Below are positions 7,974 to 36,556 of a stretch of 64,000 nt of DNA, one piece after another; positions within the stretch are counted from its first letter, which is position 1; every line of letters begins with the position of its first letter. The stretch comes from Demequina salsinemoris. GTDB lineage: Bacteria; Actinomycetota; Actinomycetes; Actinomycetales; Demequinaceae. Both the position numbers and the translations under genes were made by a program. The stretch lies in contig NZ_BBQZ01000002.1 in assembly GCF_000974805.1 (NCBI RefSeq), forward strand, positions 186,001 to 250,000. Reading direction: 5' to 3'. Under the pieces are notes generated by a model. The model made no database searches. It was given only the letters and a program-made list of their open reading frames with translations, and had not been told where the DNA came from.

Positions 7974-7985
7974 TGCTTCGTCTCC

Positions 7986-9502: not shown

Positions 9503-9528
9503 CGCGTTCGGTGTGACGGCGTTGCCGG

Positions 9529-10338: not shown

Positions 10339-10343
10339 CGAGC

Positions 10344-10898: not shown

Positions 10899-10995
10899 CG
10901 ACCCAACCTCCTTGTGGGGTTCAGGGGCGACGCCGTTGTCGCCCCGGTGGCACCAGCATGGCCGGGTGCACAGGCGAACGGAAGTACGTCCTCCT

Positions 10996-11024
10996 TAACG
11001 ATCGTGAGGTGTTCCCTAACGATC
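10996..11024. promoter_or_regulatory. Direct repeat TAACGATC upstream of the cupin gene
   Basis: TAACGATC occurs at 10996-11003 and 11017-11024, 21 bases apart, which is two helical turns. The first copy extends into the palindrome ACGATCGT. The pair lies about 100 bases before the cupin start, overlapping the end of the LysR gene. It is a plausible LysR or other activator site; the regulator is not proved. Confidence 0.4.
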
Positions 11025-11972: not shown

Positions 11973-12033
11973 CGTCGCCTCGATCGTGAGGAACAGCCTA
12001 TCCGCGCGGGCGCATTCCCACGAGCGAGACCGT

Positions 12034-12816
12034 TCAGCCCGCCGGACGTCCGACGCCGCGGTCGGCGATCAGCCTGCCCACGGCGTGCGCCTGCTCGAGC
12101 AGGATCCGCCCGATCTCCGGCCTCCGATCGGGTCCGAAGCGCGACTCGACGCCCGTGGCGGACAGCGCCCACGCGGGTCGGCCGGACGCGTCGAAGATCG
12201 CTGCGGCCATCCCCCAGCTGCCCTCGACGATGAGCCCAGGGTTGACGACATAGCCGGTGCGGCGAGCGCTCTCGAGGCGCTCGCGCAGGGCGTCGGCCGA
12301 GTGCGCAGGGCCCCACGCGGCCGCAAGGTCGGCCCGCGCGAGATAGGCCTCGCGCTCGGCGGCGGGGGACATCGCAAGGATGGCCAGGCCGGCCGAGGCG
12401 ACGCCCAGCGGGAAGCGGATGCCCTCGTAGAGCACGTGCGAGCGCAACGGGAAGGATCCCTCCTCGCGCAGCAGGCACACGGTCTCGTCGCCTCGACGGG
12501 CCGAGAGGAAGGCGCTCTCGCCCGTGTGCCGGGCGACCTCGCGCACCGCGCCGGACGCGAGCGCCGTGATGTCGTAGCGCTCCGCCGCCACGGAGCCCAG
12601 GATGTACGCCTCCGGTCCGAGCAGCCATCCGCGGTCAGGGTCGCGGTCCACGAGCCCCTCGGCGGCGAGCGCCGCGAGCAGACGATGCGTGGTCGGCCGG
12701 GTCAGGTGCGTGGCCTCGGCGACGCGTGAGGTCGGCAGCGGCGCTCCCGCGCTCGCGCTGAGCGTGCGCAGCACGGCGCCGATCCGCGCGACGACCTGCG
12801 CTCCCTGCTCGGCCAT
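12034..12816 (-). CDS. IclR family transcriptional regulator
   Basis: A 260-residue IclR regulator with winged HTH (TSRVAEATHLTRPTTHRLLAAL) and IclR effector domain (VCLLREEGSFPLRSHVL ... PLGVASAGLAILA). The reading frame continues far upstream, but the ATG at 12816 is the natural start because the DNA beyond belongs to its promoter and the divergent operon. It faces the CoA-transferase-thiolase operon, as PcaR or PobR-type regulators do in beta-ketoadipate pathways. Three copies of a 13-base operator lie in the shared promoter. Confidence 0.9.
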   Translation of the reverse strand: MAEQGAQVVARIGAVLRTLSASAGAPLPTSRVAEATHLTRPTTHRLLAALAAEGLVDRDPDRGWLLGPEAYILGSVAAERYDITALASGAVREVARHTGESAFLSARRGDETVCLLREEGSFPLRSHVLYEGIRFPLGVASAGLAILAMSPAAEREAYLARADLAAAWGPAHSADALRERLESARRTGYVVNPGLIVEGSWGMAAAIFDASGRPAWALSATGVESRFGPDRRPEIGRILLEQAHAVGRLIADRGVGRPAG

Positions 12817-12835
12817 GCGCGCCCTCCCCGTTCGT

Positions 12836-12934
12836 CCACAATGTGGTCTCGTGCCGCGTCTCTGACCACATCGTGTCATGTCATTGACGTGTCCTCTACT
12901 GCGAACTAGCGTCCGAGGAATCCACGATGTGGTC
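12836..12934. promoter_or_regulatory. Three operator copies, consensus MCACRATGTGGTC
   Basis: CCACAATGTGGTC is at 12836-12848, the reverse complement ACACGATGTGGTC at 12864-12876, and CCACGATGTGGTC at 12922-12934. The first contains a perfect palindrome CCACA-A-TGTGG. All lie between the IclR gene and the divergent scoA operon. The last copy ends 21 bases before the scoA start, so it can block that promoter; the first lies 20 bases from the IclR start, which suggests autoregulation. Confidence 0.65.
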
Positions 12935-12954
12935 AGACAAAGGAGTCGGGCGTC

Positions 12955-13650
12955 ATGGGAAAGCTGTACGGGAGCGCGGCCGAGGCCGTCGCGGACGTGG
13001 TGCAGGACGGTCAGATCATCGCCGTCGGAGGGTTCGGGCTCAGCGGGAACCCCACCGACCTGATCGAGGCGCTGCGGGACACGGGCGCGCGTGACCTCAC
13101 CATCGTGAGCAACAACATGGGGGTCGACGGCAAGGGCCTGGGCGTGCTCCTCGAGGCGGGGCAGGTCCGCAAGGTCGTCGCCTCGTACGTCGGCGAGAAC
13201 AAGCTCTTCGCCGAGCAGTATCTCGCCGGCCGGCTCGACGTGGAGTTCGCGCCCCAGGGGACGCTCGCGGAACGGATGCGAGCCGGAGGCTCCGGGATCG
13301 CGGGCTTCTACACGCGCACCGGCGTCGGCACTCCGGTCGCCGAGGGCAAGCCGACCTCCGTGTTCGACGGCGTCGAGTACGTGCTCGAGCGCGGCATCGT
13401 CGCCGACGTGGCCTTGGTCAAGGCTCACCGCGCCGACACCGCGGGCAACCTCAGGTACCGCTTCACGGCGCGGAACTTCAACCCGCTCGCGGCGATGTCC
13501 GGTCGCGTGACGATCGCGGAGGCCGAGGAGGTCGACCCGCATCCGCTCGACCCCGACACGGTCGAGACCCCTGGCATCTTCGTGCAGCGCCTCGTGCGCT
13601 GCGCGCCGCGCGTCAAGGACATCGAGCAGCGCACGACGAGGGAGGCCTGA
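12955..13650 (+). CDS. scoA: 3-oxoacid CoA-transferase subunit A
   Basis: A 231-residue CoA-transferase family I alpha subunit. The [16 protein letters not shown] motif near the start binds CoA, and the mid region has [16 protein letters not shown], as in SCOT and PcaI. It acts with the next gene to move CoA from succinyl-CoA to a 3-oxo acid such as acetoacetate or 3-oxoadipate. The gene begins after AAAGGAG. It is the first gene of an operon with subunit B and a thiolase, controlled by the divergent IclR regulator. Confidence 0.92.
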
Positions 13651-13651
13651 C

Positions 13652-14296
13652 ATGCCGTGGACGCGTGACGAGATGGCGGCCGTCGCCGCCGAGGAGCTCG
13701 AGGACGGCCAGTACGTGAACCTCGGGATCGGCATCCCGACGCTCGTGGCGAACCACCTGCCACCCGGCGTGAGCGTGACGCTGCAGAGCGAGAACGGGAT
13801 GCTCGGCATGGGACCGTTCCCTCTTGCCGGGGACGAGGACGCCGACCTCATCAACGCGGGCAAGCAGACCGTGACGGTGCTTCCCGGGGGAAGCTTCTTC
13901 GACTCGGCGACCTCGTTCGCGATGATCCGTGGCGGTCACGTCGACGCCGCGATCCTCGGCGCGCTGCAGGTCTCCCAGGCGGGCGACCTCGCGAACTGGA
14001 CCATCCCGGGCAAGCTCGTCAAGGGCATGGGCGGAGCGATGGACCTGGTCGCGGGCACCAAGCGGGTCGTCGTCATCACCGACCATGTCGCGAGGGACGG
14101 ATCGCCGAAGATCGTCGAGCAGTGCACCCTCCCGCTCACCGGCGTCGGGGTCGTCGACCGCATCGTCACCGACCTGTGCGTCCTCGACGTGGTCGACGGC
14201 TCCCTGGTGCTGCGCAGGCTCGCCCCCGACGTCACCGAGCAGCAGGTCGTCGAGTCGACGGGGGCTCCGGTGCGCATCGAGCTGGAGGTCGCGTGA
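13652..14296 (+). CDS. scoB: 3-oxoacid CoA-transferase subunit B
   Basis: A 214-residue beta subunit of family I CoA-transferase. The catalytic glutamate is E47 in [12 protein letters not shown], the residue that carries the CoA thioester. The [15 protein letters not shown] segment precedes it. The start is 1 base after the scoA stop, and the stop overlaps the thiolase GTG (GTGA), so all three are coupled. 3-oxoadipate and acetoacetate enzymes cannot be told apart by motif alone. Confidence 0.92.
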
Positions 14297-15447
14297 GCGT
14301 CGTCATCGCGGGCTACGCCCGCACGCCGTTCGTGAAGTACTGCGGGCAGTTCGCGCGTATCCCAGCGACGGCGCTGGGTGCTCACGCGGCCGCGGCGGCG
14401 CTCGAACGCGCTGGACTGGCGCCCGCTTCCGTGGACCGGGTGGTCGCGGGCCAGGTGCTCCAGGGAGGCGTCGGTCAGAACCCCGCTCGCCAGGCCGCGG
14501 TCGGCGCGGGCGTGCCGATGACCACGCCCGCATCGACGCTCAACGTCGTGTGCCTGTCCGGCACCGAGGCCGTCGCTCAGGGCGCGCGGCTCATCGAGAC
14601 AGGCGAGGCCGACGTCGTCCTCACGATCGGCATGGAGTCCATGACGCTCGCGCCCCACGCGTACGCGGGGTCGCGCATGGGCGCGAGGTACGGAGCGATC
14701 GAGCTGCTCGACACCATGGCTCACGACGGCCTCACCGACGCGTTCGAGCATCGGGCGATGGGTGTCTCGACCGAGGAGCACTCGGAGCGCTACGACCTCA
14801 CCCGCGAGGAGCAGGACGCGTGGGCCGCCGAGTCCCATCGACGGCTCGCAGACTCGTCCGCATTCCAGGCCCAGGAGATCGCCCCGCTCGAGCCCAAGCC
14901 TGGGGCGGAGGCGGTGACGGCCGACGATGGGGTGCGGCCGGGGACGACGGTCGAGTCGCTCGCCCGCCTCCGACCCGCGTTCGGAGGGCGCGGCACGATC
15001 ACGGCCGGCAACGCGTCCCAGATCTCCGATGGCGCCGCCGCGCTCGTGCTCGCCCGGGAAGGCGTGGCCCCGAATCCGCTCGCGCGCGTCGTGTCCTGGG
15101 CGCTCGTCGCGGGGCCCGACGTCTCGCTCCACGTCCAGCCGGCCAACGCTGCACGCGCGGCGCTCGAGCGCGCCGGAAGGACAGTGGACGATGTGGCGGC
15201 CTGGGAGATCTCGGAGGCGTTCGCCGCGGTGTCGCTCGCGTCGACCAGGAGCCTCGGCGTCGATCCCGCGCTCGTCAACGCGCACGGGGGAGCGATCGCG
15301 CTCGGTCACCCGATCGGAGCGTCGGGAGCACGCATCGTCGGCACGGTCGCGCGGACCGCTGCGGCGGCGGGAGCGGGCGCGCTCGGCGTCGCGGCGATCT
15401 GCGGCGGCGGGGGCCAGGGCTCCGCGGTCGTCGTGGAGGCGCTCTGA
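14293..15447 (+). CDS. Acetyl-CoA C-acetyltransferase (thiolase)
   Basis: A 384-residue thiolase. The nucleophilic cysteine is in [12 protein letters not shown]. The catalytic histidine is in [17 protein letters not shown], and the second cysteine in AICGGGGQG. The start is GTG at 14293, overlapping scoB. With ScoAB it converts a 3-oxo acid to its CoA ester and then cleaves it to acetyl-CoA plus a shorter acyl-CoA. It could be AtoB-like or PcaF-like. The longer frame upstream is only a shadow of scoB. Confidence 0.92.
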
Positions 15448-15466
15448 CCGGTCAGGACGCAGGGCG

Positions 15467-16369
15467 TCACGAGACGGTTCGTGCCGTGGTCGGCTGCTCG
15501 GGGATGCGCGCGGGAGCGCCGGGCGACTCCGTGGCCCACCACGCAGCGAGCAGGCCGAGCTTCTCCGCCGACGCAGATCCGGGCGCGGCGGCGTAGACCG
15601 TGAGGGACAGATCCTCGTCCGCGGGGAGCGCGAGCGTGTTGTACTCGAGCTCGAGCATGCCTACCTCAGGGTGGTTCACCCGTTTGATCCCCTCGATGTG
15701 GAGGCGCACGTCGTGCCGGGCCCACCGCACGCGGAACTCCTCGGAGCGAGTCGACAGTTCGCCGACCAGGTCCGTGATCTCCTTGTCGAAGGGATTGCGG
15801 CCGGCCACCGTGCGCAGGCTCGCGACCGACGAGTCGGCGATGTCCTCCCAGTCCGGGTAGAACTGGCGCGCGCTCGGATCGAAGAAGATGTAGCGGGCGT
15901 AGCTCACCCGTTCGCCCATCGCCCGGTACAGGGGGTCGTACAGGGCACGTGCGAGGGCGTTCGTCGCGACGATGCCGGAGGTGCGGTCGCCGAGCACGGC
16001 CGCTCCGGTGGACACCGAGTCGAGCAGGTGAAGCAGGCTCGGGCGGATCGACGTCCGCGGGGCAGCGCGCTTGCGCGCCCTGGCGCCCGCGTTCGCGGTG
16101 CGCGCGAGGTCGAACAGATGGCGGTGTTCGGCCTCGGAGAAGCGCAGCGCGGACGCGATCGCCTCGAGCACCTCGTCCGAGACGCCTCGCAGGTCCCCGC
16201 GCTCGAGCTTCGTGTAGTACTCGACGCTGACCCCGGCGAGCACCGCGACCTCGCCGCGCCGCAGCCCCGGCACCCGGCGATTGCCCGCGGAGGGCAGTCC
16301 GACCATCTCCGGGGTCACCTTCGCACGGCGGCTCACCAGGAACTCGCGCACCTCGTCTCGGGAAGTCAT
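15467..16369 (-). CDS. HTH transcriptional regulator, MmyB-like ligand-binding type
   Basis: A 300-residue regulator with an N-terminal XRE-type HTH (RRVPGLRRGEVAVLAGVSVEYYTKLERG) and a C-terminal MmyB-like ligand-binding domain containing ARHDVRLHIEGIKRVNHPEVG. I start at the ATG at 16369, matching its paralogue at 24867. TACCGT sits 7 bases before that ATG, so the mRNA is probably leaderless. A GTG at 16378 adds three residues. It is divergent from the CMD-cupin-alcohol dehydrogenase operon, as is usual for this family, which often controls such redox genes. Confidence 0.88.
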   Translation of the reverse strand: MTSRDEVREFLVSRRAKVTPEMVGLPSAGNRRVPGLRRGEVAVLAGVSVEYYTKLERGDLRGVSDEVLEAIASALRFSEAEHRHLFDLARTANAGARARKRAAPRTSIRPSLLHLLDSVSTGAAVLGDRTSGIVATNALARALYDPLYRAMGERVSYARYIFFDPSARQFYPDWEDIADSSVASLRTVAGRNPFDKEITDLVGELSTRSEEFRVRWARHDVRLHIEGIKRVNHPEVGMLELEYNTLALPADEDLSLTVYAAAPGSASAEKLGLLAAWWATESPGAPARIPEQPTTARTVS

Positions 16370-16470
16370 GAGACCCACGGTACGTGCCGCATCGTCCCGG
16401 AAGGGGGTACTGGTGGTGCCACCCCTGACAGCACCTGGTTCATGTGCGCGAGCCGACGTGAACTTGAGTC

Positions 16471-16800
16471 ATGACCAGTTCAGATCAGACCCCGATGCAG
16501 AAGATGATGGGCGGATTCGCCCCGACGTTCGTAGGGCTGACGGATGACGTCCTCTTCGGAAAGGTGTGGTCGCGCACCGACGAGCTGTCCCCACGTGACC
16601 GCAGCCTCGTGACCATCACGAGCCTCGTGACCGCGGGCAGCATCGAGCAGCTCAAGGCGCACATCCCGATGGGGATCGCCAACGGCCTCACCGAGGACGA
16701 GGTCGTCGAGGCCATCACGCACGTCGCGTTCTACACGGGGTGGCCGCGCACCGTGTCCGCGCTCACCCTCGCCAAGCAGCTGTTCGCACAGCACCAGTAG
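16471..16800 (+). CDS. Carboxymuconolactone decarboxylase family protein (small)
   Basis: A 109-residue CMD-fold protein with the signature LSPRDRSLVTITSLVTAG and IPMGIANGLTEDEVVEAITHVAFYTGWPR. This is the short type commonly found beside a cupin and an alcohol dehydrogenase. No CxxC pair is present. It is first in a three-gene operon facing an MmyB-type regulator. The biochemical role of this small type is not settled; a detoxifying or lactone-related role is inference. Confidence 0.85.
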   Translation: MTSSDQTPMQKMMGGFAPTFVGLTDDVLFGKVWSRTDELSPRDRSLVTITSLVTAGSIEQLKAHIPMGIANGLTEDEVVEAITHVAFYTGWPRTVSALTLAKQLFAQHQ

Positions 16801-27938: not shown

Positions 27939-28071
27939 CTACTGCGTGCGAGGGCCCCTGATCTGGGAGTGCAGGCGCGTCATCCTCGAGTCGAGCTCGG
28001 ACGCCGCGACCGCGGCCTCCCTGAGCTCGTCGGTCAGCTCGTCGGGCACGTCCTTGTCGTACTTGTAGTAG
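27939..28071 (-). pseudogene. Detached C-terminal end of the alarmone synthetase gene
   Basis: On the minus strand this encodes YYKYDKDVPDELTDEL, then REAAVAASELDSRMTRLHSQ, then a stop at 27939. That is the normal tail of RelA/SpoT-domain small alarmone synthetases after FWASLEHKI. The reading frame joins exactly, within the 7-base repeat GTAGTAG, to the gene body at 35993-36556. The fragment has lost its start and is probably not expressed. It shows where the mobile element entered. Confidence 0.85.
28065..28071. other. Left attachment junction (attL core GTAGTAG)
   Basis: The core is preceded by the detached 3' end of the alarmone synthetase gene and followed by element DNA. The same seven bases are at the right junction, and removing the element restores the gene's frame. 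The core could extend with mismatches. Only seven bases are identical. Confidence 0.75.
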
Positions 28072-28120
28072 GTATTTCATGAAAGTCGATCTACCAGGCG
28101 CGATGCACGTCGATTTGCTG

Positions 28121-28146
28121 TCTGGTCAGCACCAGGTCAGCACCAG
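28121..28146. repeat. Left copy of a 26-bp end repeat (probable integrase arm site)
   Basis: A tandem of the 11-base unit GGTCAGCACCA within a 26-base block starting TCTGGTCAGCACC. The block recurs at 35852-35877 in the same orientation with two mismatches. It lies about 50 bases inside the left junction. Tandem arm-type sites near both ends are typical of tyrosine integrase attachment regions. Confidence 0.6.
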
Positions 28147-28269
28147 CGCGGACAAGGGCCGTTTTCTGGTCCGTTTCGACCCCCTCGACGGTGGTCGCGA
28201 CGCCCCCTCAGCGCAGCGCGCGAGGTCGGGGTCGATCTACCTGAACCGTACAGTGCGCGGCGGGCACCG

Positions 28270-28441
28270 TCACCCGCGCCGGTCCAGTTCGCCGCGCAGC
28301 GCGTCCAGCCCCGCGACCCACGCCCACGGCTCCGGGGCAGGATCGCTACCCGTGACACACCACGCCGTCAGCCCGTCCAGCATGGGGCGATCCTCCCGAC
28401 GCTGGCGATAGCCGACGAACTCCAACAGGGACCGCTCTAGC
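28270..28441 (-). pseudogene. C-terminal fragment of the cargo gene split by the IS
   Basis: Encodes ERSLLEFVGYRQRREDRP, then MLDGLTAWCVTG and onward to a stop at 28270 on the minus strand. When the IS and one TCTAGC copy are removed, it reads straight on from the frame at 29502-30278 (GPSAL-ERSLL). As it stands it could only be translated from a frame beginning inside the IS at 28515. The intact product would have had about 316 residues. Beyond it, 28072-28269 holds only the left arm site and no gene. Confidence 0.75.
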
Positions 28442-29496
28442 TGTTCTTCCCCGGAGGGTTGTGAACGTGTGAGGTAGGCGAAGGCCTCCGGGACGATGTG
28501 GGTTACCACACTCACTTCGTTCCACGGAGGCCTTCGTGACCCACGCTAACGCTCCCTTGACGCCCGAGGGGCGTCGCCGGCTTGCTTCTCTCATCGTTGA
28601 TGAGCATTGGACGGTGCGCCGTGCCGCCGAACGGTTCCAGGTCTCGCCCGCGACCGCGTCGCGGTGGGCTCGGCGGTATCGCGACGGCGTAGCGCTCACT
28701 GACAGATCCTCACGGCCTCGCCACTGCCCTGGACGTCTCAGCGTGCGCAGGGAACGCAGGATCATCGCCTTGCGGTTCACTCGCCGGTGGGGTCCGCACC
28801 GCATCGGCTACCACCTGGGAATCCCTCGCTCCACGGTCGGCCGAGTGCTTGAGCGTTACCGGATGCCGCTGCTGCACCATCTTGATCAAGCCACCGGACT
28901 CACGGTGCGCAAGCCCAAGCCCGTGCGCTACGCCAAGGACGCTCCGGGCGAGCTGATCCACGTCGACATCAAGAAGCTCGGACGCATCCCCGACGGCGGT
29001 GGCTGGCGCAAGCTCGGACGCCAAGCCGGGCGACGCAACAGCCGCACCCGTGGCCGGGGATACGCCTACCTGCATCACGCCGTCGACGACTGCACCCGCC
29101 TGGCCTACTCCGAGCACCTCGACGACGAACGCAAGGAGACCGCAGCCGCGTTCTGGATCCGTGCCCGAGCGTTCTTCGCCGACAATGGCATCACCGTGAC
29201 CGCCGTGATGACCGACAACGGCTCGTGCTACCGCTCACGGCTGTTCGCCAAGACGCTCGGCGAGGACATCAAGCACGTCCGCATCCGCCCCTACCGACCG
29301 CAAACCAACGGCAAGGTCGAACGCTTCAACCGCACCCTGGCCACCGAATGGGCCTACGCCGAGACCTACCGCTCAGACGCGGCCCGCGCCGCGACCTACG
29401 CGGACTGGCTCCATCACTACAATCACCATCGACCCCACACCGCGCTCGACGGCTCAACACCAGCCGACCGCGTTCACAACCTCACGGGGAAGAACA
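28442..29496 (+). mobile_element. IS481-family insertion sequence, 1055 bp
   Basis: Terminal inverted repeats start TGTTCTTCCCCG at both ends and match at 24 of 28 positions (28442-28469 and 29469-29496). A 6-bp target duplication TCTAGC flanks it at 28436-28441 and 29497-29502. It holds one DDE transposase. It is inserted in a cargo gene of the larger element. The intact ends and duplication indicate a recent, probably functional copy. Confidence 0.9.
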
Positions 29497-29501
29497 TCTA
29501 G
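28536..29501 (+). CDS. IS481-family transposase
   Basis: A 321-residue transposase with N-terminal HTH regions (RRAAERFQVSPATASRWARRYRDG and a second at about 90-108) and an rve catalytic core. The triad is D144 (IHVDIKKLG), D227 (MTDNGS) and E262 (NGKVERFNR), with the canonical 35-residue gap between the last two. The start is GTG at 28536 after CACGGAGG. The last sense codon straddles the IS end and the stop TAG lies in the target duplication, so the stop codon is supplied by the host site. Confidence 0.95.
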   Translation: MTHANAPLTPEGRRRLASLIVDEHWTVRRAAERFQVSPATASRWARRYRDGVALTDRSSRPRHCPGRLSVRRERRIIALRFTRRWGPHRIGYHLGIPRSTVGRVLERYRMPLLHHLDQATGLTVRKPKPVRYAKDAPGELIHVDIKKLGRIPDGGGWRKLGRQAGRRNSRTRGRGYAYLHHAVDDCTRLAYSEHLDDERKETAAAFWIRARAFFADNGITVTAVMTDNGSCYRSRLFAKTLGEDIKHVRIRPYRPQTNGKVERFNRTLATEWAYAETYRSDAARAATYADWLHHYNHHRPHTALDGSTPADRVHNLTGKNI

Positions 29502-30278
29502 CGCGCTGGGGCCGTTGGCCCCCTCGGTGACGTAGGCGCGCTCACACGTCGGGCACAGGAACCCCGCCCGCGCCGCATTGTCCCGGCCCCCAATGGACTT
29601 GACGCGGAACGTGTGCGGCGTCCACGGCTTCGAGCGGGTCAGCGCCGTCACCGCGTCCACACCGCAATACAGGCACCCCCCGGACGGGCACGGCTGGCGC
29701 GTGGGCCGGTCCACCTTGGCCGCGAGCATGTCCACGTAGGCGGCGCGCGCGTCGTCGCGGTCGTCGTCGCTCACGTGCCCCCACGGGGTCAGCGTCCCCT
29801 GCTGCGCGTTCGCGCCCTTGACCGTCACTGGTGACAGGCGTGCGGCGAACTGGGCGGCGGCTCCCGCGTCCATCATCGCGGCGACCACGCGCAGCATGTC
29901 CGGGGCCGTCGTCGGCGGTGCCTGGCCCGCCAGTTCGCACCCGTCCAACGCACACCACACGCGCGCCGCCACGATGTCCGGGGAACCGTAGCGGCGTCGT
30001 AGCGCGTCGTCGTGCGCCCAACGCTGCGCGAGGTCGCGACGGGCCGCACACGCCTGACACAACGGCAGGACCACCTGCCCGCCACCCTGGGGCGTCAGCC
30101 CCATGCTCAGCGTCGTCTCAGTCCCCATCGTGGTGACGGTGACCGTGGGCGGCTCGGTTTCCATCCTGACCGCCAGCCCGCACCGCGCGCACCCGCGCAC
30201 CCCCTCGGGTAGATCCTTGACCGGCTGTGTCCGGTCCACGGCCTCGAACTCGGCTTGGAACCTGTTGCGCTTGCTCAT
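29502..30278 (-). pseudogene. Cysteine-rich cargo protein, N-terminal part (split by IS)
   Basis: Starts at 30278, overlapping the stop of the upstream gene by ATGA. The product has several paired cysteines that look like zinc ribbons: CARCG, PLCQACAARRD, CPSGGCLYCGVD and FLCPTCERAYV. In the present DNA the frame runs 16 codons into the IS (to 29454), replacing the native C-terminus found at 28270-28441. I recognise no family. A nucleic-acid-binding or structural zinc protein is possible. It is the last gene of the element's leftward operon. Confidence 0.7.
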
Positions 30279-30655
30279 GCCTGCCCCCTGTTGCGGTGTC
30301 GGTTGCTGTGTCGTCTGGGTGCGTTCGTGTCCTGTCGTGGGCGCGCGCCGGGGGCGTCCGTGACGGGTCGCGTGCCGTCCGGCGTTGGGGCGCGCAGCGC
30401 GGGGGTGTGGAACTTGGGCGGCGGCGCGCCCGGCTCGGGCTTGGGGTAGCCCGCTGCGGCCATACGATCACCACACATCGCGGTGTGACCCCCGGACGGC
30501 CAGCACTCCATGCCAGCGGGCACGTCGTGCGTGGGGCAGCGGGTCGCGAGGATGCGCGCCCACGCGCGGGCGGACTGTTCGGCGGTGCGGGCGCGGGCGG
30601 CTTCGTCTCGGGCTGCGCGCTCGGCGTCGGTGGGTTTGTCGCTGTGTCGGGGCAT
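30275..30655 (-). CDS. Small element protein with Cys/His motif, unknown function
   Basis: A 126-residue basic protein. An Arg/Ala-rich helix (residues 10-37) is followed by TRCPTHDVPAGMECWPSG and GGHTAMCGDRM, which together supply three Cys and two His and look like a zinc-binding module. The C-terminal half is proline-rich and disordered. It is coupled to the next gene by ATGA. Similar Cys/His modules are frequent in actinobacterial phages and islands. The role is unknown. Confidence 0.55.
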   Translation of the reverse strand: MPRHSDKPTDAERAARDEAARARTAEQSARAWARILATRCPTHDVPAGMECWPSGGHTAMCGDRMAAAGYPKPEPGAPPPKFHTPALRAPTPDGTRPVTDAPGARPRQDTNAPRRHSNRHRNRGQA

Positions 30656-30753
30656 GACGGAATCCAGTGATCCTCAGGCCCGGCCCTTCTGCCAGCGGCG
30701 TGCATCGCACCTTCGGGTGGGCGACGCTTGCCCCCCACCGTACGCGCGTGGTG

Positions 30754-31152
30754 TCAGTCGCGCACGCCAGCCTCGATGCGCTGCCGGGTCAGACGCCGGA
30801 TCGTGTAGCGCGTGAACCATGCCGTGAAGAAACCCCAGGCGATGAACCACGCCGCTACCGCCCACACTCCAAGTGCCTCGTAAAGCGACCGTTCTGGGAA
30901 GAAGGCCGCGATCCAAGCGCCTCGGCTGTACACATTGGAGTCTTTCCAGGAAGCGTTGGCGAACGCGGTGCCAGCGGCCGTGAGCATGCCGATGATCGGC
31001 AGCACGGCTGTGGTCGCGGCCACGACTCGGCGTTGCGAATAGCGTTGCGGATTCCGGAAAACGTCGGTGCCGTGGCATAGCCAAACCAGGAAGCCCAACA
31101 GACCCCAGAAAGCAAGCATGCCAACCCAGAAAACCACGTGTCCCCAGTTCAC
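30754..31152 (-). CDS. Small multi-helix membrane protein (element cargo)
   Basis: A 132-residue membrane protein with hydrophobic helices at about 4-26, 43-64 and 92-113 and an Arg-rich C-terminus (RYTIRRLTRQR). No signal-peptide cleavage site is obvious. Its codon use is less GC-extreme than the flanking genes. It sits between the probable small terminase and the cysteine-rich genes, in the zone where phage satellites carry accessory or anti-phage genes. The function is unknown. Confidence 0.65.
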   Translation of the reverse strand: MNWGHVVFWVGMLAFWGLLGFLVWLCHGTDVFRNPQRYSQRRVVAATTAVLPIIGMLTAAGTAFANASWKDSNVYSRGAWIAAFFPERSLYEALGVWAVAAWFIAWGFFTAWFTRYTIRRLTRQRIEAGVRD

Positions 31153-31215
31153 GTACGCCCCCAGTCGCGTCCGAGTCGATGCCCGATTCTTTCACGCGGA
31201 CTCGGCACCTCCGCG

Positions 31216-31809
31216 CTAACTCGCGTCGGACTCCGCGATGCGGCGCACCACGCCCTCGGCCTCGGCCACGGGTCCACCCAGCCGTGCCTCGGCAGCGTCA
31301 GCGGCCTCAGTCGCCTGCCGTGCCGCCAGACGTAGGCGGGCGACGGCCTCGGCGCTCGTGGGCGGGCCTGGCGGCATCTGCACCACGGGAACGTCCTCAC
31401 TGGTCCCCAGGCCGTAGGCGTCAGCCGTGAGCCGGTCTGCGAGGGCCTGCCAGTGGCGTACCTCGCTCGGGGGCAGGTCCGCGAGGTTCATCGCTTCACG
31501 CGCCGTTCTCGCGATGCCTGAGGCGGCTTCGGCGCGGGCCTGCCGCTCGGTCTGCGCGTCGATCACGGCGGCACGGTAGGCACGCTGGCGGGCACGGTCG
31601 CACTCGGCGTCCCACCACGCGGCCCGCGACACCCACTCATGCGCGCTCGACCAGCGGAACACGGTGCGATGGGACACGCCCACGGCCTCGGCTGTCGATC
31701 TGAGCGAGCGCGTCGGCCCGGCGTCCCGATAGTGGGCGAACGCGCCGAACGCCCTCGGCGTCTCCCCGTCCTGACGCTCCCACCGCTCCGGGTGCTGCAT
31801 CGTCGTCAT
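31216..31809 (-). CDS. Probable phage terminase small subunit
   Basis: A 197-residue protein. The N-terminus carries a helix-turn-helix typical of small terminases: ETPRAFGAFAHYRDAG, RSLRSTAEAVGVSHRTVFRWSS, HEWVSRAAWWDAE. It is followed by a long charged helix (RARQRAYRAAVIDAQTERQARAEA) that would mediate oligomerisation. The start overlaps the previous gene by ATGA. In phages this subunit recognises the packaging site; in satellites it redirects a helper phage's packaging motor. No large subunit is nearby. It might instead be a generic HTH element protein. Confidence 0.6.
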   Translation of the reverse strand: MTTMQHPERWERQDGETPRAFGAFAHYRDAGPTRSLRSTAEAVGVSHRTVFRWSSAHEWVSRAAWWDAECDRARQRAYRAAVIDAQTERQARAEAASGIARTAREAMNLADLPPSEVRHWQALADRLTADAYGLGTSEDVPVVQMPPGPPTSAEAVARLRLAARQATEAADAAEARLGGPVAEAEGVVRRIAESDAS

Positions 31810-32072
31810 GGTCCTTCCCCTTCCCCTCGGGTCAGGCTCTCTAGAGCCTCGGTGTAGCCCGCGAGCATGTCGGGCGTCATGTCGGCGGCGTCGGGCACCG
31901 TCTCGGAGAACCAGGCCAGGAACCAGCCGTGGACGTGATCGCGCAGCGCGGGCCGTGCGTCCATCCAGTCCCAGAACCAGTGTCCGGGGTCGTCGCGGGC
32001 GGCGAGCAGCGCGGCCACGAACTCGTCCCACGTCAGCACGTCGTGGACGTGATCGCGCTCCCGTCGCCTCAC
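31806..32072 (-). CDS. Small element protein, unknown (88 residues)
   Basis: An acidic, tryptophan-rich protein (PGHWFWDWMDARPALRD, GWFLAWFSE). It starts at GTG 32072, overlapping the upstream stop, and its stop overlaps the terminase start (ATGA). The chain of overlaps supports expression. No recognised domain. Confidence 0.55.
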   Translation of the reverse strand: MRRRERDHVHDVLTWDEFVAALLAARDDPGHWFWDWMDARPALRDHVHGWFLAWFSETVPDAADMTPDMLAGYTEALESLTRGEGEGP

Positions 32073-32281
32073 AGCGGCCCCCTGGTGCTCCTCAGCCGCT
32101 CTAGCAGCGCCGCCTGGACACCGCGCCTGCTGAGCGTCTCCTCGGGGGCGTCTGTGACGATCAGCGCGGCCCTGTCGAGTAGAGACGCCAAAGGCTCGGC
32201 GTCCGGGTCGTCCTGTGCGACGTGGACGGCGAGGAACTCGCGGAACGCCGCCGCGAGGTTGTCGGCGTCGGGGTCGATCAC
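32069..32281 (-). CDS. Small element protein, unknown (70 residues)
   Basis: Starts at GTG 32281, which overlaps the previous gene's stop (GTGA), and ends within the next start. The product is a soluble helical protein (NLAAAFREFLAVHVAQDD, LLDRAALIVTDAPEE). The open frame upstream of 32281 is a shadow. No recognised domain. Confidence 0.5.
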   Translation of the reverse strand: MIDPDADNLAAAFREFLAVHVAQDDPDAEPLASLLDRAALIVTDAPEETLSRRGVQAALLERLRSTRGPL

Positions 32282-32475
32282 TCGCGCCTCCGTCGTGTGA
32301 TGTCGGCGCGCTGTACCTCGGCGTCGGTGAACGTGTCGAGCACCTGCCGGACCTCGTGCGTCGTAAGCCGCTGTCCAGCGTCGTGAGCGCGGGTCCGCAC
32401 CTCCTGGTCGTCGGGATCGGCGGCGAGTGCGCGGATCGCGTGGGCGAGCCGTTGCTGGTCGCGGGTCATGTTCAT
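32278..32475 (-). CDS. Small element protein, unknown (65 residues)
   Basis: Begins MNMTRDQQRLAHAIRALA with GAGAGGAA 7 bases before the ATG. The C-terminus is basic (ADITRRRRE). It is the first gene after the iteron array and the start of a chain of overlapping genes leading to the small terminase. It is predicted to be all helical with no known family. Confidence 0.5.
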   Translation of the reverse strand: MNMTRDQQRLAHAIRALAADPDDQEVRTRAHDAGQRLTTHEVRQVLDTFTDAEVQRADITRRRRE

Positions 32476-32711
32476 GCTCGGGTTCCTCTCGTGGTCGTGG
32501 TCGTCTCGGTCTGCAAGGTCGCCTTGGGGCGTCCATCCGGCGCGTGAGCATCCGGCCTGCGTCGGGGCGAGTCAAGGGCGGCTTCGCCGTCGCTCCGCGA
32601 TGGGCCTGCGGCCCACCCTGGACACACCCCGTCTCCGGCCTCTGGTGCTCCGCTATCGGATGGATGCCCCCGGTGTGCTGGTCGGTGTCCCGGTCTCGGC
32701 AGGGCATGGCC

Positions 32712-32877
32712 CGTGTCCGCGTGTCCCCCCTTAAGGGGTGGGACACACGGGACACGGGGCCTTTTGCCGTGTCCCGGACACGGTGGGACACGGTGGGACA
32801 CGGTATGTACCAGGAAAAATGCGGGACACGCTAACCGTGTCCCGGACACGGGACACGATGGGACACGTCGGGACACG
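32712..32877. other. Iteron array GGGACACG: putative replication origin
   Basis: By eye, ten exact copies of GGGACACG lie in about 160 bp: forward at 32749, 32785, 32795, 32823, 32850, 32860 and 32870, reverse at 32720, 32768 and 32836, plus near copies. Runs are spaced exactly 10 bases apart. The 17-base palindrome CCGTGTCCCGGACACGG occurs twice (32767-32783 and 32835-32851), and CCCCTTAAGGGG is at 32727-32738. The array abuts the 3' end of the RepA-like gene. The 236 bases from 32476 to 32711 hold no gene I can support. Confidence 0.7.
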
Positions 32878-32878
32878 C

Positions 32879-33973
32879 TCAACGGACCCATTCGGGCACC
32901 TCCCCGGACACCTCGAAGCCGTCCCCATCGGGCACGACGTGGCCGTGATCGACAAGCCACCTGCGGGCATCATCGACTGCCGTCCCGCGTCCGCTGACGG
33001 CCTTGCGGATCGCGGTCACGTTGGCCCCTGGATGGGCCTCGATGAACCTCCACACGGCGGCAGCTCGAACAGGGCGAGCGGGCGTCGAGGGAGCGGTGCT
33101 ACCCGAGGTGCTGGGGGCCACGAGACGCGCGTCGAGGCCGTCGTCGTCGGGGGCGAGCCGCAAGTCAGCGACGGCTCGGCCCTCGTCGTGCCAGCCGTCG
33201 TTGTCCTTGACGGGCCAGTACCGGAAGGTTCCGGCGTTAGTGCGGGTCGGTGGCTCGATCACGTCGGCGCGGAGGATGGTGCCCTGGATCGCGGCATCCT
33301 TCCTAAGCGATCCAGCGGAGTCGCGGGCCTTGGCGTCGCCCTTGGGCGTGTGGTCCACCAGGACGACGGTCGCTCCCACATCGAGCAGGGGAGCGACGTA
33401 GCGGGTGTGCCACAGGTCGGCGTCGGGCGCGCTCTCGGTCAGTCGGCCCCCGGCGTACGTGCGGGCCATGCTCGCCCCTCGTGAGTCGATCAGCACGAGC
33501 GCGCCGCTGTAGACCTCGACGGACCGCTCGACCTCAGCCTCGACCCATAGCTCGATGCTGTCCGGCATGTGCCTCATCTGCCGGTAGTCGAACCGGCTGA
33601 GGATCGTGTCGATGTCGAGTCCCAGGAGCGTCAGCCGCTCGTACGCGCGGCGCGGACGATGCTCCACGTCGAGCATGAACACGGGCCAGCCCTCACGGGC
33701 CATGACGGACGCCGCAGAGAACAAGCCCAACCATGACTTGCCCGATCCTCGCGGGCCGATGATCGCGTTGTCCGTGCCCGGCGTCCACAGTGCGGCCCCG
33801 GTCGGTGTGCCCGTCTCCCGGTCCTCGACGGGCACGAGCGACGGACCCGGATCACGCTCACCAGCTGCGATCCGGGCGAGCAGGTCGGTCGGGTCGAACC
33901 TGGGCGGCATCCCGTACGTCGAGCGCGGGGGACCTCCGTCGCTGTCGGGTGCGTAGGTGCGCGGCTCAGTCAT
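32879..33973 (-). CDS. RepA-like AAA ATPase (replication protein)
   Basis: A 364-residue RecA-fold ATPase of the AAA_25/RepA type. Walker A is GPRGSGKS (73-80), Walker B ALVLIDS (158-164), and VVLVDHTPKG (203-212) follows. A winged-helix-like C-terminal domain spans about 310-350. I start at ATG 33973, which has GAGGGGG upstream; the frame can extend to GTG 34012 without a ribosome site. Such proteins are hexameric helicases or origin-loading factors of plasmids and satellites. The adjacent iteron array fits that role. Confidence 0.75.
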   Translation of the reverse strand: MTEPRTYAPDSDGGPPRSTYGMPPRFDPTDLLARIAAGERDPGPSLVPVEDRETGTPTGAALWTPGTDNAIIGPRGSGKSWLGLFSAASVMAREGWPVFMLDVEHRPRRAYERLTLLGLDIDTILSRFDYRQMRHMPDSIELWVEAEVERSVEVYSGALVLIDSRGASMARTYAGGRLTESAPDADLWHTRYVAPLLDVGATVVLVDHTPKGDAKARDSAGSLRKDAAIQGTILRADVIEPPTRTNAGTFRYWPVKDNDGWHDEGRAVADLRLAPDDDGLDARLVAPSTSGSTAPSTPARPVRAAAVWRFIEAHPGANVTAIRKAVSGRGTAVDDARRWLVDHGHVVPDGDGFEVSGEVPEWVR

Positions 33974-34108
33974 CCTCGACCCCCTCGGCGTCGAGGGCCT
34001 GGTCGTTGTCACAGGGATGGGTTACCGTGGTCGCGTCCCACACACCCCGCGTAGTCGTGGACATCTGACGGCGGCCCTTGCACCGGGCCGCCGTCGCCAT
34101 GTTCGGAG

Positions 34109-34342
34109 TCATGCGCCGGGCGTCGTCAGGTTCTCCTCGATGTACGTGAGTATGTCCTCGGAGCGGTACCAGATGCGGCGGTCATCGCGAACGAACCTCG
34201 GGCCTTGCCCTCGGCGGCGCATGACTCGCAGACCTCCCGGTGTACGCCGCAGATAGCTCGCGGCCTCGGCGTCAGTGAGAAGGATTCCGGGGACCAGCGG
34301 ACTTGCGGGTGCCTGGTCCGTGCGGGTCGGGATGGCGGTCAA
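34109..34342 (-). CDS. Excisionase-like helix-turn-helix protein
   Basis: A 77-residue protein with a MerR/Xis-type winged HTH: LLTDAEAASYLRRTPGGLRVMRRRG, then RFVRDDRRIWYRSEDILTYIEEN. Proteins of this size and type next to a tyrosine integrase commonly act as excision directionality factors. It is the first leftward gene and is divergent from the integrase. As no CI-type repressor is visible in the element, it may also control the int/rep promoters (inference). Confidence 0.75.
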   Translation of the reverse strand: MTAIPTRTDQAPASPLVPGILLTDAEAASYLRRTPGGLRVMRRRGQGPRFVRDDRRIWYRSEDILTYIEENLTTPGA

Positions 34343-34471
34343 AGCGGGTGCTCCTCGTGCTAGGTGCGCTCATGTCCGTCTCCTTGGTTCGCATGTTGCC
34401 TTTTCAGTTGGGGCGCGATGGGTTGGTGGTCGGCGGGGCCTCTCGGCGGTCGCTTTGCTGACCATAATCCC

Positions 34472-34573
34472 GTTACTGACTGTTTCGCGAACCGACACGC
34501 CAGCAAAGTAGCTGGTACACATACATTTTGTATGACCTGTAAGGGGAACTATGAAACTTACTACAAAATGTAT
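34472..34573. promoter_or_regulatory. Int/xis divergent control region with two kinds of inverted site
   Basis: GTTACTGACTGTT at 34472-34484 is the exact reverse complement of a 13-mer at 35892-35904 near attR. ATACATTTTGTA at 34521-34532 is repeated in inverted form as TACAAAATGTAT at 34562-34573, which ends 2 bases before the integrase ATG. The first of this pair is also part of the palindrome CATACA-TTT-TGTATG. The whole region (34343-34575) is AT-rich and holds no gene. Confidence 0.55.
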
Positions 34574-34575
34574 TC

Positions 34576-35721
34576 ATGGCATGGATTCGAGACAAGGGCC
34601 GCGCAACCAAGGGACGCCGCTGGCTCGTCGTATGGCGCGAGGACAAGCGCGAACGCTCCCGCGCGTTCACCTACAAGGCAGAGGCCGAACGGTTCGCCCG
34701 CGAGGTCGATAGCGCCCTCGACCGGGGCGAGACTCCCAGCGCGATCAAACGCACCCCCGACACGATGCCCACCGTCGAGGAGTACGCGACCAGGTGGCAA
34801 GCCGCACAGCCCTACGGCCCCAGCGCCACGGCCCAGCGCGCCACCGTCGTACGCCGCCACATCGTCCCCACCTTCGGACCGCTACCCCTGGACGCCCTCA
34901 CACCCACCCATATCCGCGAATGGCTGGCCGTCATGCCCGGCGCGGAGTCGTCCCGACTGCACCGCTTCCGGGTGCTGTCCGCGATGCTCGGAGCCGCCGT
35001 CGATGACGGACTGATCGCGACCAACCCCTGCGCCGCGCGCTCGGTCAAGCCCCCTCGCCCCGTCTCCCGTCCCGTCGAAGTATGGGACGCCGACACCCTC
35101 GCCGCCGTCCGCACGGCCCTGCCTGAGCGATACCGGCTCCTGGTGGACCTCGGCGCGGGCCTAGGGCTTCGCCAGGGCGAGACGTACGGCCTCGGCCTAC
35201 ACGACGTAGACCTCGTGAACGGAATGGTCCAGGTCCGTCGCCAAGTACGCCTCGACGCACACCAGCCCGTCTACGCGCTCCCCAAGGGCGAAAAGACCCG
35301 CGAGGTCCCGCTCCCCGGCAACGTGGCCGACGCAATCCGAGAGCACCTAGAGAAGTTCCCAGCCCAGCCCGTCACGCTCCCGTGGGCCTCACGCGACCAG
35401 ACGCTCGACGGCGAGCCGACGACCGTCGCGCTCCTGCTGACCACGCGGCGTCAGCGTCCCCTCGGACATCGCTACATGGTCACGAGCGCGTGGAAACCCG
35501 CGCTCAAGGCCGCAGGAGTGCCGCAGACGCGCGCGAACGGCTCCCACGTCCTACGCCACACGTTCGCGTCCCAGCTCCTCGGGGGAGGGGTCGGCGTCGC
35601 CGCCGTGTCCAAGTACCTCGGCCACGCCACGAGCGCGATCACGCTGTCCACCTACGCTCACATGCTCCCCAGCGCGGAAGCCGATGCTCGCCAGGTGCTC
35701 GACGCGCTCCTCAAACGCTGA
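34576..35721 (+). CDS. int: Tyrosine site-specific integrase
   Basis: A 381-residue phage-type integrase. An N-terminal arm-binding region (about 1-60) and SAM-like core-binding domain (65-155) precede the catalytic domain. Active-site residues are R199 (LGLRQGE), K240 (PKGEKTREV), H324 and R327 (HVLRHTF), H350 (YLGHAT) and Y360 (STYAHM). No ribosome site precedes the ATG; instead TACAAAATGTAT covers that position, so expression may be tightly held. It catalyses insertion at the alarmone synthetase gene and, with the HTH protein, excision. Confidence 0.93.
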   Translation: MAWIRDKGRATKGRRWLVVWREDKRERSRAFTYKAEAERFAREVDSALDRGETPSAIKRTPDTMPTVEEYATRWQAAQPYGPSATAQRATVVRRHIVPTFGPLPLDALTPTHIREWLAVMPGAESSRLHRFRVLSAMLGAAVDDGLIATNPCAARSVKPPRPVSRPVEVWDADTLAAVRTALPERYRLLVDLGAGLGLRQGETYGLGLHDVDLVNGMVQVRRQVRLDAHQPVYALPKGEKTREVPLPGNVADAIREHLEKFPAQPVTLPWASRDQTLDGEPTTVALLLTTRRQRPLGHRYMVTSAWKPALKAAGVPQTRANGSHVLRHTFASQLLGGGVGVAAVSKYLGHATSAITLSTYAHMLPSAEADARQVLDALLKR

Positions 35722-35851
35722 CGCGCACCTGACGGTCCTCACCGGGGGTCGTGCCGCTCGACAGGGGTGGCGCGGCCCCCTTCGCCGTCTCTGTCGGCTC
35801 CTCGCGGGCGTCCGGTCAGCGCGTCGTCAGCGCCTCGGCCCTGAGTCCTGG

Positions 35852-35877
35852 TCTGGTCAGCACCTAGTCAGCACCAG
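35852..35877. repeat. Right copy of the 26-bp end repeat (probable arm site)
   Basis: Same orientation as the block at 28121-28146, with two mismatches in the middle (CACCTAGTC instead of CACCAGGTC). It lies about 115 bases inside the right junction, between the integrase gene and attR. Likely an integrase arm-binding site. Confidence 0.6.
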
Positions 35878-35888
35878 ATGTCCCAGGG

Positions 35889-35905
35889 AGTAACAGTCAG
35901 TAACA
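35889..35905. promoter_or_regulatory. AGTAACA tandem near attR (possible Xis/Int site)
   Basis: AGTAACA occurs at 35889-35895 and 35899-35905, 10 bases apart. Inside it, AACAGTCAGTAAC (35892-35904) matches, in reverse, a site in the int/xis control region. Same-helix-face spacing suggests cooperative protein binding. Confidence 0.45.
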
Positions 35906-36556
35906 ACATTCACCGAAATTAGCCCTGGTAATCGCCAGTCTGGTCGGGTGAAAGCGCGGCAACCAGGAGCGATGGGGACACCGCGAATATTCGTAGTAGA
36001 TCTTGTGCTCGAGGCTCGCCCAGAAGTCCATCGCGATCGTGCGGAACTGGACCTCGACGGGAACGTGCACCGTGGTCGAGGACAGGAAGACCGGCACCTC
36101 GACGATCGCGTGCAGGCTCTGGTAGCCGTTCGGCTTCGGCTCCGCGATGTAGTCCTTGACCGCGCGGACCGTCACGTCGTCCTGCTGGGTGAGCAGATCG
36201 AACAGACGGTAGACGTCGGACACGAAGGCGCAGGTCACCCGGATCCCCGCGATGTCGGTGATGTTGTCGCGGATCGCCTCGAGGTCGTGCGCGACGCCCT
36301 TGCGGTCGATCTTCTCCACGAGGCTCTCAGGCGACTTCACGCGGCTCGTCACATGCTCGATCGGGTTGTAGTCGTGCAGCTCCAGGAACTCATCGCGCAG
36401 GATCGACAGCTTCGTCTCGATCTCCCGCATGCCGAACTCGTACTGAAGGAGGAACCGCTGCATCTCGCGTCGCCAGGCCTTCACCTGCTCCGGCCCGCCG
36501 ATCGGTCCGGCCGAGTACTCCACGAGCGCGAGAGCGTCGGGCGTGTTCAGCGTCAT
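35897..36556 (-). pseudogene. Small alarmone synthetase (RelA/SpoT domain), C-terminus replaced by element DNA
   Basis: Starts at ATG 36556 with GAAGGA upstream. The first 188 residues are native and keep the synthetase motifs: SRVKSPESLVEKI (71-83), DIAGIRV (101-107), NGYQSLHA (143-150) and VEVQFRTIAMDFWASLEH (167-184). After IYY the frame enters the element and adds 31 foreign residues before stopping at 35897. The original tail is at 27939-28071. Such enzymes make (p)ppGpp from GTP/GDP and ATP. No hydrolase domain is present. The chimera may still be active, so it is not necessarily dead. Confidence 0.85.
35993..35999. other. Right attachment junction (attR core GTAGTAG)
   Basis: Second copy of the 7-base core. 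To its right the alarmone synthetase coding sequence begins (minus strand HKIYY); to its left is element DNA ending in ACCGCGAATATTC. It pairs with 28065-28071. Confidence 0.75.

What the first reader, a model, noticed from the sequence alone, without database searches (positions are those of the whole stretch)
28065..35999. PICI-like phage satellite in an actinomycete, inserted in an alarmone synthetase gene
The gene order (integrase divergent from an excisionase-like HTH, RepA-like ATPase, iteron array, tiny genes, probable small terminase, cargo) and the absence of structural, conjugation and large-terminase genes match phage-inducible chromosomal islands. The element is defined at both ends by a split gene and a short core repeat. 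Satellites with this target gene are not known to me.
Basis: partly seen in the sequence, partly recalled or inferred. Interest (0 to 1): 0.9.

Follow-up and report, generated by a model that had tools for sequence, protein, structure and literature searches.

The report
Small phage-satellite island in alarmone gene
A bacterium, probably an actinomycete, carries a small, precisely inserted DNA island that has the parts to cut itself out, copy itself and probably borrow a phage's packaging motor; it looks like a phage parasite of a known general kind, but with an unusual home, because it interrupts a gene for making a bacterial stress signal.

Summary
A 7.9-kb island (28065-35999) splits a YjbM/YwaC-type small alarmone synthetase gene at a 7-bp core. 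Joining the flanks gives an in-frame gene, and 30 of 43 genus relatives carry that gene uninterrupted. A 9-bp repeat occurs twice at each end and, as exact matches, nowhere else in the window. The island encodes a tyrosine integrase, a divergent Xis/AlpA-like protein, a RepA-like ATPase, an iteron array, three small overlapping genes and a probable terminase small subunit (phrog_6299, 2.9e-19). In viral contigs, the ORF after relatives of that subunit is a large terminase in at least 36 of 55. No convincing structural, large-terminase or transfer gene was found. Two islands with mapped ends share the gene order but carry an unrelated small terminase, one in the same genus; a third shares integrase, Xis and TerS in another order. 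A phage satellite that redirects helper packaging is the best reading; induction and packaging are untested. It falls short of the typical PICI size, so it is PICI-like, not a filed PICI.

The parts
28065..28071 (.). core repeat GTAGTAG, left junction (C-terminal part of the synthetase gene on its left)
35993..35999 (.). core repeat GTAGTAG, right junction (N-terminal part of the synthetase gene on its right)
35897..36556 (-). small alarmone synthetase gene, N-terminal part: 188 native residues followed by 31 island-encoded residues
   Evidence: (GTPPhKinYjbM 5.3e-44, below its curated cut-off, as expected of a truncated protein)
27939..28064 (-). C-terminal part (41 residues and stop) of the same synthetase gene, separated from its start
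28120..28146 (+). left arm-type repeats (GTCAGCACC at 28125 and 28136)
35851..35877 (+). right arm-type repeats (GTCAGCACC at 35856 and 35867)
34576..35721 (+). tyrosine integrase, 381 aa
34109..34342 (-). AlpA/Xis-like HTH_17 protein, 77 aa, divergent from the integrase
   Evidence: relative in sister island L099 1.3e-12
33966..34112 (-). possible 48-aa ORF between Xis and RepA (weak)
   Evidence: own simple gene caller only
32879..34012 (-). RepA-like AAA_25 ATPase, 377 aa (or 364 aa from the ATG at 33973)
32685..32876 (.). iteron array of GGGACAC/GTGTCCC, putative replication origin
32278..32475 (-). 65-aa small gene, first of four genes that overlap by 4 bp
32069..32281 (-). 70-aa small gene
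31806..32072 (-). 88-aa small gene
31216..31809 (-). probable terminase small subunit, 197 aa (phrog_6299)
30754..31152 (-). 132-aa protein with about three hydrophobic segments, function unknown (possible cargo)
30275..30655 (-). 126-aa protein, no family
29503..30278 (-). N-terminal piece of a zinc-ribbon-like gene (cysteine pairs seen by eye) broken by the IS; in L075 and L080 its relatives are followed by a 214-215-aa gene and then a large terminase
28270..28440 (-). C-terminal piece of the same gene (weak match, 1e-4 and 7e-4, to the relatives' C-termini)
28441..29497 (+). IS481-family element, 1057 bp, between CTAG copies at 28437-28440 and 29498-29501; transposase ORF 28536-29501
   Evidence: (transpos_IS481 1.7e-99)

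Best explanation
The island is a small phage satellite. It sits silent in a small alarmone synthetase gene. When a helper phage infects, the Xis/AlpA-like protein and the integrase cut it out at the GTAGTAG core, using the arm repeats at each end; the RepA-like ATPase acts at the iteron origin and the circle replicates; the island's own TerS binds a site in island DNA and directs the helper's large terminase to fill helper capsids with it. Shown: the ends, the intact core and arm repeats, the genes, the TerS homology and its phage gene order, and no convincing structural or transfer gene. Inferred: excision, replication, pac recognition and helper dependence. The host genome shows no large terminase by the two profiles tried, so the helper is more likely an infecting phage than a resident prophage.
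For: Precise ends and empty sites. Integrase, Xis/AlpA-like HTH, RepA-like ATPase and iterons. TerS: phrog_6299 2.9e-19 over residues 4-139; in a prophage-like region of G345, another family of the order, the homologue (1.9e-12) lies directly before a large terminase and a portal gene; among 56 viral-contig relatives 55 have an ORF of at least 330 codons just downstream, at least 36 of these 55 match a large-terminase PHROG and 25 of 55 Pfam Terminase_6N. The TerS gene is the last of four that overlap by 4 bp, right behind the iterons. Islands with ends mapped by direct repeats: G004, same genus, 9.7 kb, same gene order, integrase 1.2e-43 and RepA 1.5e-16, TerS of another family (phrog_1496 7.8e-21); G128, 10.6 kb at tRNA-Phe, same gene order, RepA-like domain inside an 820-aa primase fusion (4.6e-11; blastp 8.4e-13), TerS phrog_1496 1.5e-16, and a capsid gene; G450, 12.3 kb at tRNA-Lys, integrase 1.4e-23, Xis 1.3e-12 and TerS 4.1e-17, plus a tape-measure-like gene. 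Of their 51 called proteins, 44 were scanned together and none matched a large terminase.
Against: No helper, induction or packaging data. No recognisable repressor. Size below the PICI range. The AAA_25 match barely passes the Pfam cut-off and no primase domain was found. The predicted TerS fold gave no significant PDB match and mostly common HTH domains in the second look. TerS similarity is strong only in about the first 70-130 residues. G450 has a different gene order: its integrase and Xis lie at opposite ends and on one strand, and its replication gene was guessed by eye (no PHROG match). Integrase similarity to G128 and G450 is family-level only. The RepA-like protein is not specific to TerS islands: of 15 other RepA-positive genomes in the order TerS was confirmed by PHROGs in two, G004 and G128, and most others were not tested. 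The closest integrase relative (G077, 42%, 2.0e-80) lies beside an HTH gene and a Prim-Pol gene with no small terminase noticed. Searches with TerS (47 genomes of the family, 396 of the order), RepA (same) and integrase (396 of the order, E 1e-40 or better) found no close copy of the island.
Confidence: 0.72

Rival explanations
1. A decayed prophage: the integration and replication end of a temperate phage plus a stray TerS, with the structural genes deleted.
For: The recognised genes have phage relatives; relatives of the zinc-ribbon-like gene stand near a large terminase in L075 and L080; an IS has broken one gene; G128's island has a capsid gene and G450's a tail gene, so islands of this kind grade into phage remnants.
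Against: No convincing structural or lysis remnant; the core genes are open and tightly packed; core and arm repeats are present at both ends; the order integrase, Xis, replication gene, TerS recurs in two other islands with mapped ends, with an unrelated TerS, which decay would not be expected to produce repeatedly.
Confidence: 0.15
2. An integrated cryptic or mobilisable plasmid (IME or small AICE-like element) in which the TerS-like protein is a DNA-binding regulator.
For: Iterons with a RepA-like ATPase resemble a plasmid replicon; the N-terminal HTH of the TerS model is a general DNA-binding fold.
Against: No relaxase, Tra or FtsK-like family among the proteins scanned; the RepA-like protein has no match in 72,556 plasmid records; TerS relatives mostly precede large terminases. 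oriT was not searched for.
Confidence: 0.08
3. A defence or regulatory island that merely uses phage-like integration and is not mobilised by phages.
For: The 132-aa membrane and 126-aa proteins of unknown function could be cargo; the same-genus sister island carries a candidate defence protein (PDC-M63A, 2.3e-15).
Against: Eight of the island's proteins gave no PADLOC match at 0.01 except a weak HTH-only one of TerS (mad1, 0.003); it does not explain TerS and an origin.
Confidence: 0.05

Closest known systems
PICI (phage-inducible chromosomal islands; criteria from passages of PMC6092414)
   Same: Integrase divergent from a Xis/AlpA-like regulator, replication gene followed by an origin, TerS downstream (present in some PICIs), no structural or lytic genes found, specific att site.
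   Different: 7.9 kb instead of about 12-15 kb; no separate repressor found; RepA-like ATPase without a primase domain; helper and packaging unknown.
Candidate PICIs of Mycobacterium (passages of PMC10654092)
   Same: Integrated actinobacterial elements proposed as satellites from gene content.
   Different: Those were defined by an integrase plus a major capsid gene; this island has a TerS and no capsid found. Its sister in G128 does have a capsid gene.
Streptomyces satellites MulchRoom and MiniFlayer (passages of PMC10690885)
   Same: Actinomycete satellites; MulchRoom has a tyrosine integrase and an HTH protein; both have a small terminase and a predicted membrane protein.
   Different: They carry large terminase, portal and capsid genes and no obvious replicase; this island has a replication gene and none of those three.
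PICMI of Vibrionaceae (passages of PMC10803314)
   Same: Very small; integrase, an AlpA-type protein (its model includes HTH_17), a replication gene, no capsid remodelling gene.
   Different: The PICMI model needs a DUF3987/DUF5906 primase and a place beside fis; neither is met. The word terminase does not occur in that paper's main text.

Membership tests
PICI | integrase, replication module and master regulator in conserved order | tested here: inconclusive
   Integrase, Xis/AlpA-like HTH, RepA-like ATPase and iterons in order; no separate repressor and no primase domain found
PICI | att site never occupied by prophages | tested here: inconclusive
   None of the 30 relatives (of 43) that carry the synthetase gene whole has an insertion in it; G040 shows only a C-terminal fragment at a contig end; prophages elsewhere were not surveyed
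PICI | no phage structural or lytic genes | tested here: met
   on ten island proteins, nothing at E 0.01 or better; IS transposase and the C-terminal piece
PICI | size typically 12-15 kb | tested here: not met
   7.9 kb, of which 1.06 kb is an IS
PICI | terminase small subunit (present in some members) | tested here: met
   phrog_6299 2.9e-19; gene order of relatives; fold search inconclusive
PICI | induction by helper phage and packaging into phage particles | not testable with these tools
   needs experiments
PICI | PICI-exclusive gene families and interference genes | not tested
   no reference set of PICI genes was compared
PICMI | DUF3987/DUF5906 primase | tested here: not met
   no such family in the ten proteins
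PICMI | integration beside fis | tested here: not met
   integration in a small alarmone synthetase gene
capsid-forming PICI | capsid, portal and large terminase genes | tested here: not met
integrative mobilisable or conjugative element | relaxase or DNA-translocase transfer gene | tested here: not met
   oriT not searched
tyrosine-integrase element with core and arm-type sites | short identical core plus arm repeats at both ends | tested here: met
   binding itself untested

The most novel reading that the evidence does not exclude
The island works as a reversible switch on the host's stress signal: while integrated it replaces the last 41 residues of the small alarmone synthetase by 31 others, and when a helper phage triggers excision the gene is restored in frame, so that alarmone output returns exactly during infection and helps or harms the helper.
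Probability: 0.08. Interest if true: 0.75.

Novelty: new variant of a known kind. Interest (0 to 1): 0.5.

Why it matters
In the actinobacterial papers I saw, satellites were proposed by capsid gene content or carry their own capsid genes, and experimental validation was said to lag. A minimal island with a clear putative origin and its own TerS, plus a same-genus sister with the same gene order and an unrelated TerS, gives two small test objects for TerS-based packaging capture in such bacteria. The target gene makes an effect of carriage on the stringent response directly measurable.

Tried and rejected
A 7-bp core as sole proof of the ends: rejected, 75 of 500 shuffles reach it. The tRNA-Cys called by ARAGORN inside the island (34045-34121): rejected as att site or cargo, no Rfam match at gathering score, and it overlaps the possible 48-aa ORF and touches the end of the Xis gene. 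Fold search as proof of TerS: inconclusive. The single-sequence model was poor (pLDDT 61); with 42 sequences pLDDT was 84 and pTM 0.57. PDB gave nothing at E 0.001 or better; the second look gave Z up to 6.5, mostly HTH domains and a few long-helix proteins; BFVD gave four matches at E 0.001 or better to phage proteins, one named TetR-family regulator and three uncharacterised, with terminase-named entries at ranks 7 and 10.

Scans for close relatives that gave little: integrase in genome contigs, 2 distant hits; TerS and the zinc-ribbon-like protein alone in viral contigs, none; the zinc-ribbon alignment, none; integrase in viral contigs, 2 distant hits, not examined. TerS in phages by tblastn: 3 of 50,697 records, one annotated terminase small subunit. 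RepA in phages: 5 records, all below 60% identity. phrog_6299 in 394 genomes of the class: 3 positive, namely the window's genome, G450, and G746 with six weak identical short matches (4.8e-4) not examined.

Rows dropped or not tested. RepA hits in G370 and G046 read by eye like RecA itself and are not counted as relatives; G099 was not fetched. Of the 15 RepA-positive genomes of the order other than the window's, 14 were fetched; PHROGs was run on TerS candidates only in L049, L076 and L075, and L075's gave no match. L075 and L080 carry a large terminase and are not counted as sister islands. G313 and G146, weak TerS hits (about 1e-3), were not followed beyond a gene listing for G313. phmmer's bias filter dropped the RepA match to G128 that one search had shown; blastp confirmed it. 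For the structure alignment 41 of 56 viral TerS relatives were used; 15 long or near-duplicate rows were left out. A TerL profile grown from one prophage found only 14 of 56 and was replaced by family scans; 3 of 55 downstream ORFs hit an ABC-transporter family and 3 an acetyltransferase family, so a few of the 56 may not be TerS. Genes in fetched loci come from a simple caller of my own, so gene lists may be incomplete.

Literature: searches are search listings (one found nothing); passages were seen in PMC10654092, PMC10023795, PMC6092414, PMC6196244, PMC10803314 and PMC10690885; no paper was read whole. PMC10085698 is not held. That no satellite in an alarmone synthetase gene is in print rests only on listings (15 of 87 shown; 12 of 52 shown) and is weak.

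Full report
What was checked. The window lies in a 3.2-Mb genome in 20 contigs, of an unnamed genus for which 44 genomes, the own one included, were searched. The island sits between two copies of GTAGTAG at 28065-28071 and 35993-35999. To its right is the N-terminal part of a gene that NCBIfam places with YjbM-type GTP diphosphokinases (5.3e-44); to its left, on the same strand, is the missing C-terminal part. Joining the flanks at the core restores one open frame that reads through the conserved EHKIYYKYDKD region: 188 residues come from the right flank and 41 from the left; in the split gene the 41 are replaced by 31 island-encoded residues. The joined protein matches solved small alarmone synthetases (YwaC 5.7e-62 over residues 27-221; YjbM about 5e-41 to 1e-40). 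In the genus, 30 of the 43 other genomes have a single match that spans the junction, one (G040) shows only a C-terminal fragment at a contig end, and 12 have only matches of the long Rel type. The host keeps its own long Rel-type gene (a 760-codon frame), so loss of the small enzyme is probably tolerated; that is inference.

Ends. A 7-bp match is within chance (75 of 500 shuffles). The restored frame and the empty sites carry the argument. The 9-mer GTCAGCACC occurs four times in 64 kb as an exact match on either strand, as a pair 11 bp apart near each end (28125/28136 and 35856/35867). This is what arm-type integrase sites look like; binding is inferred.

Gene content. Rightmost is a tyrosine integrase. 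Divergent from it are an HTH_17 protein of the AlpA/excisionase kind and a RepA-like AAA_25 ATPase (27.9 bits against a cut-off of 27), 26-30% identical to its relatives in the five other loci aligned. A 403-bp gap behind RepA holds 12 of the window's 21 GGGACAC/GTGTCCC words; 1000 shuffles of the stretch give at most 2. Behind it lie four genes, each overlapping the next by 4 bp: 65, 70 and 88 aa and the TerS-like gene. Then follow a 132-aa protein with about three hydrophobic segments, a 126-aa protein and a zinc-ribbon-like gene. The last is cut by an IS481-family element of 1057 bp (transposase 1.7e-99) between CTAG copies. Its two pieces were compared apart: the larger is 28-30% identical to relatives in L075 and L080, the smaller matches their C-termini only weakly (1e-4 and 7e-4). 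The IS has no other full copy in this assembly. No structural, large-terminase or transfer family matched the ten proteins scanned at E 0.01 or better; chance-level matches were Lambda_tail_I 0.098, internal head protein 0.19 and tape measure 0.52.

Is it a small terminase? The profile match to phrog_6299 is 2.9e-19; Pfam's Phage_terminase match is just under its cut-off (21.1 of 22 bits). In a prophage-like region of another family (G345) the homologue is followed directly by a large terminase and a portal gene. An alignment-based scan of viral contigs found 56 relatives. For 55 of them an ORF of at least 330 codons lies just downstream; at least 36 of those match a large-terminase PHROG and 25 Pfam Terminase_6N. 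The predicted structure (pLDDT 84) is an N-terminal HTH domain followed by long helices; fold searches neither prove nor exclude TerS.

Sister islands. Ends were mapped by direct repeats in three. G004, same genus: 9.7 kb, 32-bp repeats, integrase 1.2e-43 and RepA 1.5e-16 to the window's proteins, TerS of another family (phrog_1496, 7.8e-21), two AlpA/Xis-type HTH proteins and a repressor-like protein, a candidate defence protein (2.3e-15). G128: 10.6 kb at tRNA-Phe, a primase fusion of 820 aa with the RepA-like domain, TerS phrog_1496 1.5e-16 and a major capsid gene (1.7e-25); its integrase match is only family-level (5.8e-8). Both have the window's order: integrase, divergent Xis, replication gene, TerS. 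G450: 12.3 kb at tRNA-Lys, integrase 1.4e-23, Xis 1.3e-12 and TerS 4.1e-17 to the window's proteins, plus a tape-measure-like gene (phrog_305, 7.7e-12). Its order differs: integrase and Xis lie on one strand at opposite ends with TerS between them, and its replication gene is a guess by eye. A scan of 44 of the 51 called proteins of the three islands, leaving out the three integrases, the three TerS and the tape-measure gene, showed no large terminase at 0.001; one member, that of G128, matched capsid families. So two islands share the window's order while using an unrelated TerS. That favours selection for a TerS over random prophage decay, but two cases are few.

Against the reading. The RepA-like protein also occurs in islands of other make-up: of 15 other positive genomes in the order (16 of 396 with the own one) TerS was confirmed in G004 and G128 only, and most of the rest were not tested. 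The closest integrase relative (G077, 42%, 2.0e-80) lies beside an HTH gene and a Prim-Pol gene, and I noticed no small terminase there. No repressor was recognised in the window's island.

Against a plasmid or transfer element: no relaxase or translocase family in the proteins scanned, and no match of the RepA-like protein in 72,556 plasmid records. Against a resident helper: no large terminase in the own genome with phrog_9 or phrog_2, whose controls rang in 4 and 11 of 14 genomes; other terminase families remain possible.

Mechanism. Most likely the island leaves the chromosome when a helper phage enters, replicates from the iteron origin and uses its own TerS to draw the helper's large terminase to island DNA. 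The anatomy is shown; excision, replication, pac binding and helper dependence are inferred from what is established for PICIs (PMC6092414, passages).

What is known. PICIs share the plan but are typically 12-15 kb with a regulator (PMC6092414). Actinobacterial candidates in the passages I saw were defined by integrase plus capsid in Mycobacterium (PMC10654092) or carry capsid, portal and both terminases (Streptomyces MulchRoom and MiniFlayer; PMC10690885, which also mentions predicted Actinomycetota PICIs). PICMIs are as small but use a different primase and site (PMC10803314). Experimental validation in actinobacteria was described as lagging in 2023 (PMC10023795). The island is therefore a new variant of a known kind, with an integration site for which I found no report in the limited listings searched.

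Verdict. The satellite label is well supported; formal PICI membership is not shown.

Noticed in passing
L049 (G004:C1:1119000-1138900), 6906-16584: Second satellite-like island in the same genus, with an unrelated small terminase and, two genes on, a candidate defence protein (PDC-M63A/DUF6932).
   Followed up: partly
L099 (G450:C11:187500-207400), 3101-15430: Island at tRNA-Lys with a small terminase and a 915-aa tape-measure-like protein; no capsid, portal or large terminase family matched its other scanned proteins. A tail gene in such an island is odd.
   Followed up: partly
L075 12605-15911 and L080 11534-14768: Islands in which the zinc-ribbon relative, a 214-215-aa protein and a large terminase follow one another; no capsid or portal gene was noticed nearby, but neighbours were not scanned.
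   Followed up: partly
L070 (G118), 6732-7862: A gene that reads like a major capsid protein in an island with a serine-recombinase-like gene beside Tad-pilus-like genes; read by eye only.
   Followed up: no
L085 (G040:C50, 5284 bases): The contig ends inside the C-terminal fragment of the same synthetase gene; another insertion or only an assembly break.
   Followed up: no
L081/L100 (G077): Closest integrase relative (42%), beside an HTH gene and a Prim-Pol gene; ends not mapped, no small terminase noticed.
   Followed up: partly
window 34045-34121: ARAGORN calls a tRNA-Cys inside the island; no Rfam support, probably false.
   Followed up: yes
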